DNA of 64,000 nt from Chloracidobacterium validum. GTDB taxonomy: Bacteria; Acidobacteriota; Blastocatellia; Chloracidobacteriales; Chloracidobacteriaceae. Position numbers and translations under genes: made by a program. Below are positions 6,792 through 14,961 of the stretch, in pieces; the stretch's first letter is position 1; each line of letters opens with the position of its first letter. Location of the stretch: assembly GCF_018304825.1 (NCBI RefSeq), contig NZ_CP072648.1, positions 417,501 to 481,500 on the forward strand. The letters run 5' to 3'. The notes below the pieces were generated by a model. The model was not told the origin of the DNA and did no database searches. It saw only the letters and a program-made list of their open reading frames with translations.

Positions 6792-6875
6792 CCACTTGCG
6801 AATGTCATCGGTCGCGTGCCCAGAAACGGGCGCGCAGCCTTGCCATGTATCAACAGATTGGTCAGGAGCGTGGTT

Positions 6876-8297
6876 ATGACAGTCGAAGCCAAGCCGGACG
6901 TCTTGCCGGCTCAGAATGAAGTTGAATTGGTGGTTCCGCCGCCCAGCGTTGCGCCACGTGGCGTTGGCGGCCGGAAAGCTTGGGCCGTGACGGTTGGGAT
7001 ATTGGTTGTCATCGCCGCTGCCGGTGGACTCTGGCTGCGCGCCCGCCGTTCAACCGACGTCGCATCGCCGCCGGCAACGTCCACGCCACCAGCGGCGGTT
7101 ACCAAGGCCGTGGTTGAGCTGGCGTCACTTGACGATATTGCCCTCGAACCGGTTCGCCAGGAGGCACTCACAACCAGCCTTCAGGTGACGGGAACGGTCG
7201 AACTCAACCCCCAGACCATCGTCACCGTGACACCGTTGGTTTCTGGGCGCGTAAAACAAGTTTTGGTTCAGCAGGGAACGCGCGTTCGCGCCGGACAACC
7301 GGTGGCCGTGCTCGATAGCCCGGAGATCGCCGAGTTGCACGTGCGTCTGCACGACGCCGAAACCCGCCGCGATATTGCTGCTCGCCAAGTCCAACGGGTC
7401 GAGCGCGAGGAAAGCCGTGTGGCCTTGGTTCAGTCCCGTACGCGCCTCAACCAAACGGAAGCCGCGTTTGAGCGGTTGAAGCAGTTGTTTGAGGCTGGGG
7501 TCATTTCGCGGCAGGAGCTGCAGGATGCTGAAGCCGCCTATGCCGCGGCCAAGGCCGAGTATGACTTTCAGCGCGTCGTCGGATTGGAGCGCGATCTGCG
7601 CGAAGCCCGTGCGGCCCTGGAGACTGCAACCGTTGAGGTCAAGCATCTGAGTGAGCAACTTGCAGCGCTTGGCGGGAAGGCGAGCCCAACAGATGACACG
7701 GTACACCCGGCCGGAGAAATCCAGCTCGTTGCCCCGCTGGCCGGGCTAGTGACGGAACGGACGATCAACGTCGGTGCCTTTGTTCCGGCCGGCACGGCGC
7801 TGCTGACCGTTGCCGATTTGCGGACGGTTTGGGTGATGGCGGCCGTACCCGAAGCCCAGCTTGGGCAAATTCGGATTGGACAGGCCGTGACGGTACGCGC
7901 TCCGGCGCTCGGCGAACAGACGTTGCGCGGACAGGTCGCGTTTGTCGAAGCGCAAGTCAACGCCGATACCCGTACGGCCCGGGTGCGCATCGAAGTGCCA
8001 AATCCAGGCGAACGGCTGCGCTCTGGGATGTTTGTCGAGGTGGCTTTTTTGTCCTCCACCCCCACGCCGCAACTCGTCGTGCCGGTGGCTGCCGTTCAGC
8101 GGATCGGGGCGCACACGGTCGTGTTTGTCGCCGGAGACAATCCCCACCAGTTCACGGTTCGTGAAGTTGAGCTTGGCGACGCGCAGGGAGAGTCCGTCCT
8201 GGTTCGCAGCGGGCTGACCCTTGGCGAGCGCGTGGTGGTCAAAGGTGGGCTGGCGCTCAAAACGCAACTGGCGGGCCTGGCGGCCGAAGGAGACTAG
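6876..8297 (+). CDS. RND efflux periplasmic adaptor (membrane fusion protein, CzcB/CusB type)
   Basis: I chose the ATG at 6876 because TCAGGAGC lies 7-13 bases upstream; this gives 473 residues. An N-terminal membrane anchor (about 28-50: AWAVTVGILVVIAAAGGLWL) is followed by the paired lipoyl-like halves (TVTPLVSGRVKQVLVQQGT; IQLVAPLAGLVTERTINVG). Between them runs a long coiled-coil hairpin of about 100 residues (LHDAETRRDIAARQ to LSEQLAALGG). Beta-barrel and membrane-proximal segments close the protein (TARVRIEVPNPGERLRSGMF, GLTLGERVVVKGGLAL). The adaptor bridges an RND pump to an outer-membrane channel. It ends two bases before the pump gene. No TolC-like outer-membrane gene is in the operon. 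Confidence 0.9.
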   Translation: MTVEAKPDVLPAQNEVELVVPPPSVAPRGVGGRKAWAVTVGILVVIAAAGGLWLRARRSTDVASPPATSTPPAAVTKAVVELASLDDIALEPVRQEALTTSLQVTGTVELNPQTIVTVTPLVSGRVKQVLVQQGTRVRAGQPVAVLDSPEIAELHVRLHDAETRRDIAARQVQRVEREESRVALVQSRTRLNQTEAAFERLKQLFEAGVISRQELQDAEAAYAAAKAEYDFQRVVGLERDLREARAALETATVEVKHLSEQLAALGGKASPTDDTVHPAGEIQLVAPLAGLVTERTINVGAFVPAGTALLTVADLRTVWVMAAVPEAQLGQIRIGQAVTVRAPALGEQTLRGQVAFVEAQVNADTRTARVRIEVPNPGERLRSGMFVEVAFLSSTPTPQLVVPVAAVQRIGAHTVVFVAGDNPHQFTVREVELGDAQGESVLVRSGLTLGERVVVKGGLALKTQLAGLAAEGD

Positions 8298-8299
8298 CC

Positions 8300-11200
8300 A
8301 TGCTCGACCGCATACTCCGCTTCTCAGCGAAGCATCCACTGCTGATGCTCATCGGCGTCGGCTTGTTAGTTGTCGCCGGACTGGATGCGTTCCGGCGGTT
8401 GCCGATTGACGCGGTGCCCGATGTCACCAACAACCAAGTGCAAGTGCTCACGTCCGCCCCGGCGCTGACCCCGCTGGAAATCGAACGCCAAGTCACATTT
8501 CCAGTTGAGACGGCCCTGGCCGGACTGGTCGGCGTCGAGGAAGTTCGCTCACTGTCAAAGTTTGGACTGTCGGCCGTCACGGTCGTCTTCGATGACGACG
8601 TGGACATTTACCGCGCGCGCCAGTTGGTGTTTGAGCGACTGGCAGCGGCCCGGGAGCAAATCCCGCCCGGCAGCGGAACTCCGCTGCTGGGTCCAATTAC
8701 GACCGGACTCGGCGAGGTGTACCAGTACGAGTTACGCGGCGCCCCTGACAGCGGACACGACGCCATGAGTTTACGCGCCATTCAGGACTGGATTGTGCGT
8801 CGGCAACTCCTCGGAACGCCCGGCGTGGCCGAGGTCAACAGTTATGGCGGGCTGGCCAAGCAGTACCAAGTTCGTCTTGATCCGGTCAAGCTTCAGGCCT
8901 ACAGGCTGACGCTGCGCGAAGTCATGGATGCCGTTGCCGCCGGCAATGCCAATGTCAGCGGCGGGGCGATTGTGCGCGCCCAGGAGCAGTACCTGCTGCG
9001 GGGACTGGGCTTGGCGCAGTCGGTCGAGGATTTGGAGCAGACCGTCGTGACGACGGGGCGGGATGGCGTCCCGGTCTTTGTCCGTGACTTGGGGGAGGTC
9101 GTCTGCGCCCCACCGGCCGTGCGCCAAGGAGCGGTCACGGCCGACGGCCAGGGCGAAACCGTGTGCGGGATTGTGCTCATGCTCAAGGGCGCAAATGCGC
9201 GAACCGTCACCCAGGCCGTCGCCGAACGGTTGGATGACATTGCCGCCACCCTGCCGCCGGGCGTTCACATCGTGCCGTTTTACGACCGCGCCGAACTCGT
9301 GGGGCGGACGATCCGCACTGTGATCTGGAATCTGACCGAAGGGGCGCTGATTGTCATTGGCATCCTCGTGCTGCTCCTCGGTCATTGGCCGTCGGCGCTG
9401 CTGGTCGCCACGGTCATTCCGCTCTCGATGCTGGGTGCGGCGATCGGCATGCAGGCGTTGGGTCTCTCCGGCAATCTCATGAGCCTGGGCGCGATTGATT
9501 TCGGTCTCATCGTGGACGGCGCGGTGATTTTGACCGAAAGCAGCATCCGGCGCGTGGCCGAGCGACAGCACGACGTGGGGCGGGTCTTGACGCTGACCGA
9601 ACGGCAACAAGTCGTTGTTGCTGCCTGTAGTGAAGTCCGCCGGGCGACGATGTTTGGCGAAATCATCATTGCCCTGGTGTACGTGCCGCTGCTGGTGCTG
9701 CGTGGGATTGAGGGCAAGATGTTCGCGCCCATGGCGTTGACGGTCATGTGCGCGTTGGGAAGCGCCGCCGTCCTGTCGCTGACCTATGTGCCGGCCATGC
9801 TGGTCTTTGTGTTGCGCGGGCGAGTGCGGGAACGCGAGGCGTGGCTGATTCGGCAGGCCAAGCGAATCTATGTTCCCGCGTTTGACGTTGTCCGACGGCA
9901 GCGCCCCCAAGCCACGGCGCTGTCCGGTGGGCTGGTCGTGCTGGCGGGCGTGGGCGTTTTTGCCCTAGGGGCCGAGTTCATTCCACGCTTGGAGGAAGGC
10001 GCACTGGCCGTTCAGATTCAGCGCCTGCCGAGTGTGTCGGTGGCCGAAGCGGTGCGCACGGCGACCGAAGCCGAGCAAGTGCTGCTGACGTTCCCTGAAG
10101 TGACGAAAGTCGTCACCAAAAATGGCAGCGCCGAGATTGCCACCGACCCAATGGGGATCGAGCTGGGCGACATGTACATTGGGCTGAAGCCGCCAGGCGA
10201 GTGGAAGACGGCGCGCACCCGCGAAGCGCTGATTGCCGCCATGGATGCCGCGCTCAGGGCGAAGATTCCAGAAGCGCGGTTCAGTTTCAGTCAGCCGATT
10301 GAACTGCGCGTCTCAGAACTGATCTCCGGGGCCAAATCGGATGTGGCCGTCAAGATTTTTGGCGATGACCTGGACATCCTGCGCAGCCGCGCCGAGCAAG
10401 TCGCCCAAGCGCTCGCGCGTGTTCCAGGCGCGGCCGATGTCAAACTGGAAACGATTGCCGGGACGCCTCAGATTCAGGTTCGTCCCGATCGTGCGGCGCT
10501 GGCGCGGTACGGCCTGCGGGTGGAAGACATCAACTTGCTGGTCGAGACCCTGGTGGTTGGGCGCGAGGTGGGTCTCGTTTACGAAGGCGAAAGGCGATTT
10601 CCGTTGGTGGTTCGGTTGGATGAGGCAAGCGGACGCAGCCTGGAGATGCTCAAGGCGCTGCCGTTGCTGACGCCGACGGGTGTTCGCGTGCCGTTGACTG
10701 CCGTGGCCGACGTGACCGTTGTGGAAGGCCCGGCCCAGGTGTCGCGTGAGCACGGACGGCGACGCATCGTGGTCGAGTGCAACGTGCGCGGCCGCGACTT
10801 GGGAGGCTTCGTCGCCGAGGCCCAGACACACCTGCGGCAACATGTCGCGCTCCCGCCCGGCTACCAAATGGTGTTTGGCGGGCAGTTCGAGAATCTACAG
10901 CGCGCGGCGGCGCGGCTGGCGGTGGTCGTTCCGGTTGTTCTGCTGTTGATTTACGCGCTGCTTTACGCCTCGTTTGGGCAAGTTCGCGCGGCGGCGGTGG
11001 TGTTTACCGGCGTGCCATTTGCGGCCGTGGGCGGCGTGGCAGCCTTGGCGCTGCGCGGAATGCCCTTCTCGATTTCGGCCGGGGTGGGCTTCATTGCGCT
11101 CTTCGGAGTAGCCGTCCTCAACGGGTTGGTGTTGGTTTCGGCCATCATGAACCTGCGCCGGGAAGGCCTGCCGGTTGCGCAGGCGGTACGCCAGGGAGCG

Positions 11201-11410
11201 CTGACGCGCGTCCGTCCGGTGTTGACGACGGCGCTTGTCGCCAGTCTTGGGTTTCTGCCGATGGCGACGGCCACCTCGGCCGGAGCGGAAGTGCAGCGAC
11301 CGCTTGCCACGGTCGTCATTGGCGGGTTAGTGACAGCTACCGTGTTGACCCTGCTCATCCTCCCGTCCCTGTACGAGTGGATGGAGACGAGGAACACGAA
11401 TGCTACTTAG
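8300..11410 (+). CDS. HME-type RND efflux pump (CzcA/CusA family)
   Basis: The 1036-residue protein has the RND plan of two halves, each with one N-terminal helix, a large periplasmic loop and a helix bundle. CzcA-family marks include RLPIDAVPDVTNNQVQV near residue 33, SKFGLSAVTVVFDD near 90 and the TM4 motif LGAIDFGLIVDGAVILTE near 396, whose acidic residues belong to the proton relay in heavy-metal exporters. The C-terminal half repeats the fold (GVGFIALFGVAVLNGLVLVS). It is most likely a divalent or monovalent metal exporter driven by proton influx; the metal cannot be read from the sequence. GGAG eight bases upstream supports the start. Length is normal for the family. Confidence 0.92.
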   Translation: MLDRILRFSAKHPLLMLIGVGLLVVAGLDAFRRLPIDAVPDVTNNQVQVLTSAPALTPLEIERQVTFPVETALAGLVGVEEVRSLSKFGLSAVTVVFDDDVDIYRARQLVFERLAAAREQIPPGSGTPLLGPITTGLGEVYQYELRGAPDSGHDAMSLRAIQDWIVRRQLLGTPGVAEVNSYGGLAKQYQVRLDPVKLQAYRLTLREVMDAVAAGNANVSGGAIVRAQEQYLLRGLGLAQSVEDLEQTVVTTGRDGVPVFVRDLGEVVCAPPAVRQGAVTADGQGETVCGIVLMLKGANARTVTQAVAERLDDIAATLPPGVHIVPFYDRAELVGRTIRTVIWNLTEGALIVIGILVLLLGHWPSALLVATVIPLSMLGAAIGMQALGLSGNLMSLGAIDFGLIVDGAVILTESSIRRVAERQHDVGRVLTLTERQQVVVAACSEVRRATMFGEIIIALVYVPLLVLRGIEGKMFAPMALTVMCALGSAAVLSLTYVPAMLVFVLRGRVREREAWLIRQAKRIYVPAFDVVRRQRPQATALSGGLVVLAGVGVFALGAEFIPRLEEGALAVQIQRLPSVSVAEAVRTATEAEQVLLTFPEVTKVVTKNGSAEIATDPMGIELGDMYIGLKPPGEWKTARTREALIAAMDAALRAKIPEARFSFSQPIELRVSELISGAKSDVAVKIFGDDLDILRSRAEQVAQALARVPGAADVKLETIAGTPQIQVRPDRAALARYGLRVEDINLLVETLVVGREVGLVYEGERRFPLVVRLDEASGRSLEMLKALPLLTPTGVRVPLTAVADVTVVEGPAQVSREHGRRRIVVECNVRGRDLGGFVAEAQTHLRQHVALPPGYQMVFGGQFENLQRAAARLAVVVPVVLLLIYALLYASFGQVRAAAVVFTGVPFAAVGGVAALALRGMPFSISAGVGFIALFGVAVLNGLVLVSAIMNLRREGLPVAQAVRQGALTRVRPVLTTALVASLGFLPMATATSAGAEVQRPLATVVIGGLVTATVLTLLILPSLYEWMETRNTNAT

Positions 11411-11424
11411 GAAGGCTGATAACC

Positions 11425-12132
11425 GTGGCTGAACTGCCAATCTACAACGATTCTTACCGTCCATCCTCAAACTGGGCCAAGCAGCTCGAAACCGCCCAAC
11501 GCGCCCACCCGGCCGAAGTCATCCAGGTTGCCGGTGAGCGATTGCTACCTATGTGGGTGGAAGCGTTGCTGGCCTATGAACCGCCACCCCCGCCGGTGGT
11601 GGCGGTGGAAGACGTTGCGCGGTGGCTCCTGGCGCGGGCAACGGCAGTAGCGAAAGAGGAGCGCGATGCGCTCACCCGCGCTGATCTAACCCATGCCTAC
11701 CAAACGTTGGTGGGCGGTGCAGCGGAGGCTCCGGTGTGGCGCGTGGAGGCAGGTTGCCCGCAGGTCGAAAGCCACCAGCCAGCCGCCCCGACCGCCGTGC
11801 CGCTGTTGCTGGATATGACGCTCGACTGGTTCACGACGGATGCCTTTGCCGAACTCCATCCAGTTGAGCAAGCCGGACTGTTTCACCTGCGCTTGTTGGA
11901 CTTACAGCCTTTTGCCGCGCACAGTAATTTGCTTGTACGTCTGCTGTCGAGTTTTTATGTTTTGCGCGCTGGGTTGCCGCCGCTGATACCAGTCGCTCAG
12001 GAGCAAGCCGCTTACCAGGCCGCCATTGGGTATGCTTTTCAAATGATTACACAGCCGAGCTTGGAACTTTTTGCGCGGTGGCTGCTAGCGACCTATGCCC
12101 AGATTGAAGCCAAGCAGGAGGAGCATCCGTGA
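11425..12132 (+). CDS. Fic-fold protein with a degenerate active-site motif
   Basis: The likely start is GTG 11425, preceded by GGAAGG, giving 235 residues. The region about 140-190 aligns by eye with the Fic/Doc core: HPVEQAGLFHLRLLDLQPF matches the helix leading into HPF, and VRLLSSFYVLRAGLPPLIPV matches the helix after the catalytic loop. The consensus HPFxxGNGRxxR reads LQPFAAHSNLLVR here: His is Gln at about 161, and the GNG and first Arg are gone. Fic enzymes transfer AMP or other phosphate groups to proteins; this one is unlikely to do so by that chemistry. It sits between the pump and an MBL-fold gene and overlaps the latter by four bases, so they are translationally coupled. Confidence 0.65.
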   Translation: MAELPIYNDSYRPSSNWAKQLETAQRAHPAEVIQVAGERLLPMWVEALLAYEPPPPPVVAVEDVARWLLARATAVAKEERDALTRADLTHAYQTLVGGAAEAPVWRVEAGCPQVESHQPAAPTAVPLLLDMTLDWFTTDAFAELHPVEQAGLFHLRLLDLQPFAAHSNLLVRLLSSFYVLRAGLPPLIPVAQEQAAYQAAIGYAFQMITQPSLELFARWLLATYAQIEAKQEEHP

Positions 12133-12776
12133 GATTTTTTCACGTAACGACCGGAGCGTTTCAGGCGCATACCTACTTTTTGATTTGCGAGCAGACCCGC
12201 CAAACGCTGGTAATTGATCCGGGAGAAGAATTCGAGGTCATCGCCGATGCCATTCGCGCGGAGCGGTTGGAGGTCGTGCGCATTGTCGTCTCACACGCTC
12301 ACCTTGACCATTTCTGGAGTGCCGGGGCGCTCAAAGCCATGACCGGAGCGCCGATTCATCTGCATCCAGCGGATGACTTCCTCTACACGCAGTTACCGGA
12401 ACAGGGTTCTTGGTTTGGCTTTGATCTGGAAGACGCGCCACCAGTGGATGTGTTTTTGAAAGATGGCGATGTGCTGACCTTTGGACGGGAACAAGTCAAC
12501 GTACGGCACGTGCCCGGACATTCGCCCGGACACGTGATGCTTTATAACGAAGCCGATGCTTGGGTGGGCGATTGTTTGTTTGCTTCATCGGTTGGGCGGG
12601 TGGACTTACCAGGTGGTGATGGACCAACGCTCATCCGCTCAATTGAAGACCGCATTGTGACACTCGGTGAACACTATCGCATTCACCCAGGCCACGGGCC
12701 GTCAACCACCGTCGCCCGTGAGTTGAACGACAACCCATTCCTGGGCGGACGCATCCCGTGGAGGCCGTCCCTGTGA
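12129..12776 (+). CDS. MBL-fold metallo-hydrolase (glyoxalase II-like)
   Basis: The GTG start overlaps the preceding TGA (GTGA) and has a strong AGGAGG site nine bases upstream. The 215-residue protein has the metallo-beta-lactamase signature SHAHLDHFWSAG near 56-67, HVPGHSPGHVMLY, the bridging aspartate in VGDCLF, and HPGHGPSTT near the C-terminus. These are the binuclear metal ligands of the hydroxyacylglutathione-hydrolase-like group. Many such short proteins are general thioester hydrolases or of unknown substrate. Coupling to the Fic-fold gene suggests joint expression with the efflux operon, perhaps only by position. Confidence 0.85.
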   Translation: MRFFHVTTGAFQAHTYFLICEQTRQTLVIDPGEEFEVIADAIRAERLEVVRIVVSHAHLDHFWSAGALKAMTGAPIHLHPADDFLYTQLPEQGSWFGFDLEDAPPVDVFLKDGDVLTFGREQVNVRHVPGHSPGHVMLYNEADAWVGDCLFASSVGRVDLPGGDGPTLIRSIEDRIVTLGEHYRIHPGHGPSTTVARELNDNPFLGGRIPWRPSL

Positions 12777-13250: not shown

Positions 13251-13323
<73 letters not shown>

Positions 13324-13340
13324 CTTCAGAAAGGATCGTT

Positions 13341-13427
13341 GCAGGGGTGGCCGAGCGGTCAATGGCAGCAGACTGTAAATCTGCCCTCCGAGTGAGTTCA
13401 CAGGTTCGAATCCTGTCCCCTGCACCA
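13341..13427 (+). tRNA. tRNA-Tyr (anticodon GTA)
   Basis: Acceptor GCAGGGG pairs with CCCCTGC, and the anticodon loop CTGTAAA reads GTA. A long variable arm (CCTCCGAGTGAGTTCA region) marks it as a class II tRNA, as expected for bacterial tRNA-Tyr. CCA is encoded (13425-13427). Confidence 0.97.
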
Positions 13428-13439
13428 GCTTGGACCTGA

Positions 13440-13514
<75 letters not shown>

Positions 13515-13519
13515 TCCAC

Positions 13520-13592
<73 letters not shown>

Positions 13593-13610
13593 CTTGTGAT
13601 TTTCGCGCGC

Positions 13611-14885: not shown

Positions 14886-14961
14886 AGGGGTATGGTGTCA
14901 ATGGTTAGCACGTCGGTCTCCAAAACCGAAAGTACGGGTTCGAGTCCTGTTACCCCTGCCA
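14886..14961 (+). tRNA. tRNA-Trp (anticodon CCA)
   Basis: Acceptor AGGGGTA pairs with TACCCCT, anticodon stem TCGGT/ACCGA encloses CTCCAAA, and the T loop is GGTTCGAGTCC. CCA is encoded. Its place between tuf and secE is common in bacteria. Confidence 0.97.

What the first reader, a model, noticed from the sequence alone, without database searches (positions are those of the whole stretch)
11425..12132. Pseudo-Fic protein inside a metal efflux operon
The region around 140-190 aligns with the Fic core, but HPFxxGNGR has become QPFAAHSNL, removing the catalytic His, the GNG and Arg. The gene is coupled to an MBL-fold hydrolase and follows a CzcA pump. A retained fold with lost chemistry suggests a binding or regulatory role not described for efflux systems.
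Basis: partly seen in the sequence, partly recalled or inferred. Interest (0 to 1): 0.6.

Follow-up and report, generated by a model that had tools for sequence, protein, structure and literature searches.

The report
A phylum-wide dead Fic protein family
The gene encodes a relative of the protein-modifying Fic enzymes that has lost the residues needed for catalysis, yet it has been inherited and kept under selection across much of the Acidobacteriota, so it probably works by binding something; its place in a metal-pump operon is a quirk of one genus.

Summary
Window 11425-12132 (+) encodes a 235-aa protein whose relationship to Fic is real: profile vs FICD E ~7e-26; AlphaFold model pLDDT 91.5; every Foldseek PDB hit shown is Fic, FICD first. 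HPFx(D/E)GNGR has become QPFAAHSNL. This is not one decayed gene. 40 of 43 sampled genomes of the class (outside one family) carry one clear orthologue; motif-dead homologues occur in other Acidobacteriota classes; sampled members form one clade, and dN/dS in the genus is 0.12-0.26. The motif loop varies more than most of the protein, while flanking helices gained invariant residues that canonical Fics lack. Some members of another class keep DGNGR but not the His. The efflux interpretation fails: CzcA precedes the gene only in Chloracidobacterium. Elsewhere the neighbours are galU and an RNase II/R-family gene, or rmlABD-smpB-pepA with an hfq-like gene. Best reading: a vertically inherited, ATP-independent Fic pseudoenzyme that works by binding a partner (shown: homology, motif loss, constraint; inferred: binding). 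Main rival: an AvrB-like nucleotide-sugar transferase. New variant of a known kind (degenerate Fic/Fido proteins).

The parts
11425..12132 (+). Pseudo-Fic gene, 235 aa, GTG start
11409..11415 (+). AGGAAGG, Shine-Dalgarno-like, overlapping the czcA stop (TAG 11408-11410)
   Evidence: sequence
11434..11475 (+). N-terminal segment LPIYNDSYRPSSNW (residues 4-17); its first residues are predicted disordered (pLDDT <50 at 3-9) yet similar segments occur in f1, f2 and f7 members; W17 invariant in the class
11740..11781 (+). Former Fic flap, residues 106-119: R106 (52/52 sequences), H117 and P119 (29/29 in the class); predicted ordered but without a beta-hairpin
11827..11832 (+). W135-F136: W135 in all 52 sequences, F136 in all class sequences
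11866..11901 (+). Helix E148...R156..D159, the most conserved helix; R156 in 52/52, position 159 D or E in 52/52; neither conserved in canonical Fics
11905..11940 (+). Degenerate Fic motif QPFAAHSNLLVR (canonical HxFx(D/E)GNGRxxR); loop 164-169 far more variable than its flanks
12043..12066 (+). Family-specific C-terminal motif M207-x-T209-Q-P-x-x-E214 (T209 in 47/52)
12129..12776 (+). MBL-fold hydrolase (Lactamase_B, resembles hydroxyacylglutathione hydrolases), 4-nt overlap with the fic stop
8300..11410 (+). CzcA/CusA-family RND metal efflux pump, directly upstream only in this genus
6816..8297 (+). RND periplasmic adaptor (CzcB-like)

Best explanation
The gene encodes a Fic pseudoenzyme. 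SHOWN by computation: it derives from a self-inhibited (class II, FICD-like) Fic protein; the catalytic His, the Mg-binding acid, the GNG anion hole and the first Arg are gone; sampled members form one clade, usually one copy per genome, largely following the taxonomic groups; the protein is under purifying selection; and residues not conserved in canonical Fics have become invariant (W17, R106, H117, P119, W135, F136, E148, R156, M207, T209 in the class; R106, W135, R156, D/E159, P162 across the phylum). INFERRED: it neither binds ATP nor AMPylates. It works by occupancy: the remodelled flap/groove side and the conserved helix face dock a cytosolic partner and hold, mask or present it. In Chloracidobacterium the gene is co-directional with an older MBL partner and, secondarily, with a CzcBA pump, which is not its target. 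The partner is unknown; neighbours in other lineages (SmpB, an RNase II/R-family enzyme, an Hfq-like protein) make RNA/translation quality control the first place to look. That last step is weak.
For: Homology and fold. Full-length match to canonical class II Fics from the same class, hhalign E 2e-26, including a vestigial inhibitory motif (SNAIEGN in canonical, HDLRLDG in f5/f8/f9 members). One clade against canonical Fics, SH-aLRT 100, also with the motif columns blanked. 40 of 43 class genomes outside family f4 (tally; motif checks). dN/dS 0.12-0.26. Dead-only invariant columns. Loop 164-169 entropy 2.52 bits against 0.73 and 1.03 in its flanks and 1.85 for the whole protein. Intermediates with DGNGR but no His. 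Precedents: the BepC FIC domain acts independently of its motif and binds GEF-H1 (PMC7842960); Bep8 keeps the fold with a degenerate motif thought unable to bind a nucleotide triphosphate (PMC8401265).
Against: No partner is known and no binding was tested. Invariant residues could equally serve folding, dimerisation or a new chemistry. AvrB shows that a Fido protein without the motif can still be an enzyme (PMC10866546). No coordinates were available, so clustering of the invariant residues in one surface patch is not shown. The selection estimate uses saturated dS in most pairs and sets no neutral baseline.
Confidence: 0.55

Rival explanations
1. AvrB-like transferase: the Fido fold was repurposed to use a nucleotide sugar (UDP-glucose or dTDP-rhamnose) to glycosylate a protein, with new catalytic residues.
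For: AvrB lacks HPFxxGNGR yet rhamnosylates RIN4 with UDP- or dTDP-rhamnose without divalent metal (PMC10866546). Two different neighbourhoods each hold nucleotide-sugar genes: galU directly upstream in f5/f8/f9, and rmlA/rmlB/rmlD-smpB-pepA-fic in several families of other classes. New invariant polar residues exist.
Against: The phosphate-binding loop is among the least conserved parts of the class family, where a donor-binding enzyme should keep something. AvrB appears neither in the profile search nor in the 50 Foldseek rows shown. galU and rml genes are absent nearby in the window's own family. The rml genes are 2-4 kb away, beyond smpB and pepA.
Confidence: 0.12
2. Regulator or assembly factor of the CzcBA metal efflux pump, specific to metal stress.
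For: Co-directional 14-nt spacing after czcA and a 4-nt overlap with the MBL gene; czcA-fic order found in all members of the genus examined.
Against: Outside the genus the gene is not linked to an RND pump, even in the same family (G007, G008, G009). fic is 63-70% identical across the genus against 83-86% for czcA and 88-92% for MBL, giving no sign of co-evolution with the pump.
Confidence: 0.07
3. Antagonist of canonical Fic proteins: it binds a Fic target or a Fic protein and blocks modification.
For: Many class genomes also hold canonical Fic proteins, and the protein retains class II architecture.
Against: The window's own genome has no canonical Fic: the only PF02661 match at E<=0.01 is this gene. 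Most of its genus also has none, so there is no Fic to antagonise.
Confidence: 0.1
4. The protein decayed recently and is on its way to becoming a pseudogene.
For: Motif loss; faster divergence than its neighbours.
Against: Intact frames throughout, purifying selection, presence across a class and beyond, new invariant residues.
Confidence: 0.02

Closest known systems
FICD/HYPE and other class II Fic AMPylases
   Same: Fold and full-length alignment; vestigial inhibitory-helix region in some members; flap-end H-x-P
   Different: No catalytic His, Mg-binding acid, anion hole or first Arg; adenine-contact Asn position (by alignment to FICD) is hydrophobic; conserved residues differ
AvrB (Fido rhamnosyltransferase)
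   Same: Fido fold without the HPFxxGNGR motif
   Different: AvrB has an inserted upper lobe and R266/G267/D297; none is apparent here; AvrB is an injected effector of a plant pathogen, this is a chromosomal gene of free-living bacteria
Bartonella BepC and Bep8 FIC domains
   Same: Degenerate or non-canonical motif on a Fic fold; BepC acts by binding (PMC7842960); Bep8 judged unable to bind a nucleotide triphosphate (PMC8401265)
   Different: Those are host-targeted effectors with further domains; this is a single-domain, vertically inherited gene
Doc kinase
   Same: Member of the Fido superfamily
   Different: Doc keeps His in its motif and is a toxin paired with Phd; no antitoxin here

Membership tests
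Fido (Fic/Doc/AvrB) superfamily | Fic fold | tested here: met
   AlphaFold pLDDT 91.5, pTM 0.88; Foldseek 4u04 FICD E 3e-9, TM 0.73; profile E 7e-26. Predicted, not solved.
Canonical Fic AMPylase | HxFx(D/E)GNGRxxR motif | tested here: not met
   QPFAAHSNLLVR; motif absent in 29/29 class members, present in all 21 canonical Fics used for comparison
Canonical Fic AMPylase | AMP transfer from ATP | not testable with these tools
   Needs biochemistry
Pfam PF02661 | Score over the curated cut-off of 24 bits | tested here: not met
   19.5 bits for the window protein; several orthologues pass, e.g. L016 42.6 bits
Class II Fic (N-terminal inhibitory helix, (S/T)xxxE(G/N)) | Inhibitory motif | tested here: not met
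   Absent in the window protein; degenerate (HDLRLDG) in f5/f8/f9 orthologues at the corresponding place
Fic/Doc toxin-antitoxin | Adjacent small antitoxin gene | tested here: not met
   Neighbours are czcA and an MBL hydrolase; no antitoxin noted in related loci
AvrB-type Fido transferase | Donor-binding residues (R266, G267, D297) and upper lobe | tested here: inconclusive
   The class family has no conserved residue in loop 164-169; AvrB not retrieved; no direct alignment made
CzcCBA efflux system component | Association with czc genes beyond one genus | tested here: not met

The most novel reading that the evidence does not exclude
A chromosomal, non-effector Fido family that turned from AMPylation to nucleotide-sugar-dependent protein glycosylation, or to a binding adaptor, of the RNA/translation quality-control machinery (SmpB, RNase II/R family, Hfq-like) in Acidobacteriota.
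Probability: 0.08. Interest if true: 0.8.

Novelty: new variant of a known kind. Interest (0 to 1): 0.5.

Why it matters
Degenerate Fic domains are known mainly from injected effectors. A Fic pseudoenzyme conserved as an ordinary chromosomal gene across a phylum, with members that still show intermediate stages (His lost but DGNGR kept; vestigial inhibitory motif), gives a natural series for asking how an AMPylase becomes a non-enzyme and what the Fic fold does without catalysis. It also warns against annotating such genes as AMPylases or as efflux components.

Tried and rejected
Efflux-specific role: rejected by synteny. Recent pseudogene: rejected by selection and distribution. Mobile or viral origin: no relative found in viral contigs; plasmid hits are only 25-35% identical partial matches, mostly annotated Fic family protein; the best viral structural match is a phage Fic protein at E 6e-4. 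Antagonist of a resident canonical Fic: none in the own genome. PADLOC no match; PHROGs only a weak match to a family of unknown function. A literature search for Chloracidobacterium with Fic found nothing relevant. Not reached: search outside the phylum with the profile ('of' accepts only genome handles), so restriction to Acidobacteriota is not shown. The greedy ORF picker missed the gene in a few loci because of long overlapping frames; profile and tblastn placement corrected this. A second model, of orthologue L016, was made but not searched against PDB.

Full report
OBSERVATION. The ORF at 11425-12132 (+) is real: GTG start 14 nt after the czcA stop, a Shine-Dalgarno-like AGGAAGG, 235 aa, and a 4-nt overlap with the GTG of the MBL gene at 12129. 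The Fic resemblance is real. Pfam gives 19.5 bits, below the cut-off, but phmmer against PDB sequences reaches 6e-11 and the family profile 7e-26, both to FICD homologues. The AlphaFold model (pLDDT 91.5, pTM 0.88) matches FICD first and only Fic proteins among the 50 PDB hits shown. The motif is QPFAAHSNLLVR in place of HxFx(D/E)GNGRxxR.

THE FAMILY. In one search, 44 of 58 relatives gave a match at E<=1e-3. Setting aside weak matches to other Fics (motif-checked examples L062 and L063), I count clear orthologues in 40 of 43 genomes outside family f4 and in none of 15 within f4. Record titles place the genus as Chloracidobacterium, class Blastocatellia. Profile searches over the class and phylum added members in other Acidobacteriota classes. 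Reading their motifs separated dead members from canonical Fics that the profile also reaches. In the 29-member class alignment all have lost GNGR; 22 have Q in place of His, five (f7) still have His, and two have another residue.

ONE CLADE, OLD AND CONSTRAINED. Trees with canonical Fics from the same genomes put the dead proteins in one clade (SH-aLRT 100), also with the motif columns blanked, and the dead tree largely follows the family groups. Long branches and quick searches limit the deeper order. In the genus dN/dS is 0.12-0.26 (dS is saturated in many pairs; the closest pair, G005/G001, gives 0.12). Profile-profile alignment with canonical class II Fics covers almost the full length (E 2e-26). 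In f5/f8/f9 members a degenerate inhibitory motif (HDLRLDG, for SNAIEGN) has its Asp 131-142 residues before the motif, close to the place of the canonical inhibitory Glu. Members G215, G344 and G424 of another class keep DGNGR but have L or A for His and fall inside the dead clade. This fits a stepwise loss with His going first; the order is an inference.

WHAT IS CONSERVED. The loop 164-169 has a mean entropy of 2.52 bits in the class, against 0.73 in the preceding helix, 1.03 in the following helix and 1.85 for the whole protein. R106, W135, R156 and P162 are invariant in 52 phylum-wide sequences, position 159 is always D or E, and T209 is in 47 of 52. In the class, H117, P119, F136, E148, M207 and A217 are also invariant. 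Most of these are not conserved in the canonical Fics compared. In the gapless FICD alignment, the position I take for the adenine-contacting Asn of FICD is F here; the FICD residue assignment is from my own knowledge.

CONTEXT. czcA-fic is found only in the genus. fic-MBL with the 4-nt overlap also occurs in G008 (same family, other genus) without czcA; G007, G008 and G009 have a divergent type I phosphodiesterase/nucleotide pyrophosphatase gene next to fic. In f5/f8/f9 the order is galU-fic followed by an RNB-domain (RNase II/R family) gene in nine of the ten loci with galU. In several families of other classes it is (rmlA, rmlB, rmlD)-smpB-pepA-fic with a converging hfq-like gene; not every locus shows every gene. 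These neighbourhoods may reflect old operon order rather than function.

MECHANISM. I infer a non-catalytic, ATP-independent binding protein. Two facts carry the inference: the former nucleotide loop is unconstrained, while new residues around it are fixed. BepC and Bep8 are precedents for the fold working, or persisting, without the chemistry. AvrB is the counter-precedent: a Fido enzyme without the motif. The nucleotide-sugar neighbours keep an AvrB-like transferase open at about 0.12.

LIMITS. No coordinates were available to test whether the invariant residues cluster. The family was not searched with a profile outside the phylum. Numbers of genomes are samples. The partner is unknown.

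Noticed in passing
window 13251-13593: Four tRNA genes (Thr-TGT, Tyr, Gly, Thr-GGT) lie between the MBL gene and tuf (13682); tRNA-Trp follows tuf at 14886-14961. tuf is found downstream of fic-MBL in six genus loci examined.
   Followed up: partly
L047 6710-8326 (-): GalU preceded in the same open frame by a segment resembling the ClpK N-terminal region (539 aa); a fusion or a read-through frame.
   Followed up: no
window 11434-11475 and relatives: Segment LPI[YF]x[DN][SN]...SS.W recurs in f1, f2 and f7 members although its first residues are predicted disordered; possibly a short binding motif.
   Followed up: no
L154-L156 (G424, G344, G215): Fic relatives that keep DGNGR but have lost the catalytic His; good candidates for nucleotide binding without transfer.
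   Followed up: partly
window 10777-12132: A long open frame (451 aa) runs in the fic frame through the 3' end of czcA; an overlapping frame that misleads ORF callers.
   Followed up: yes
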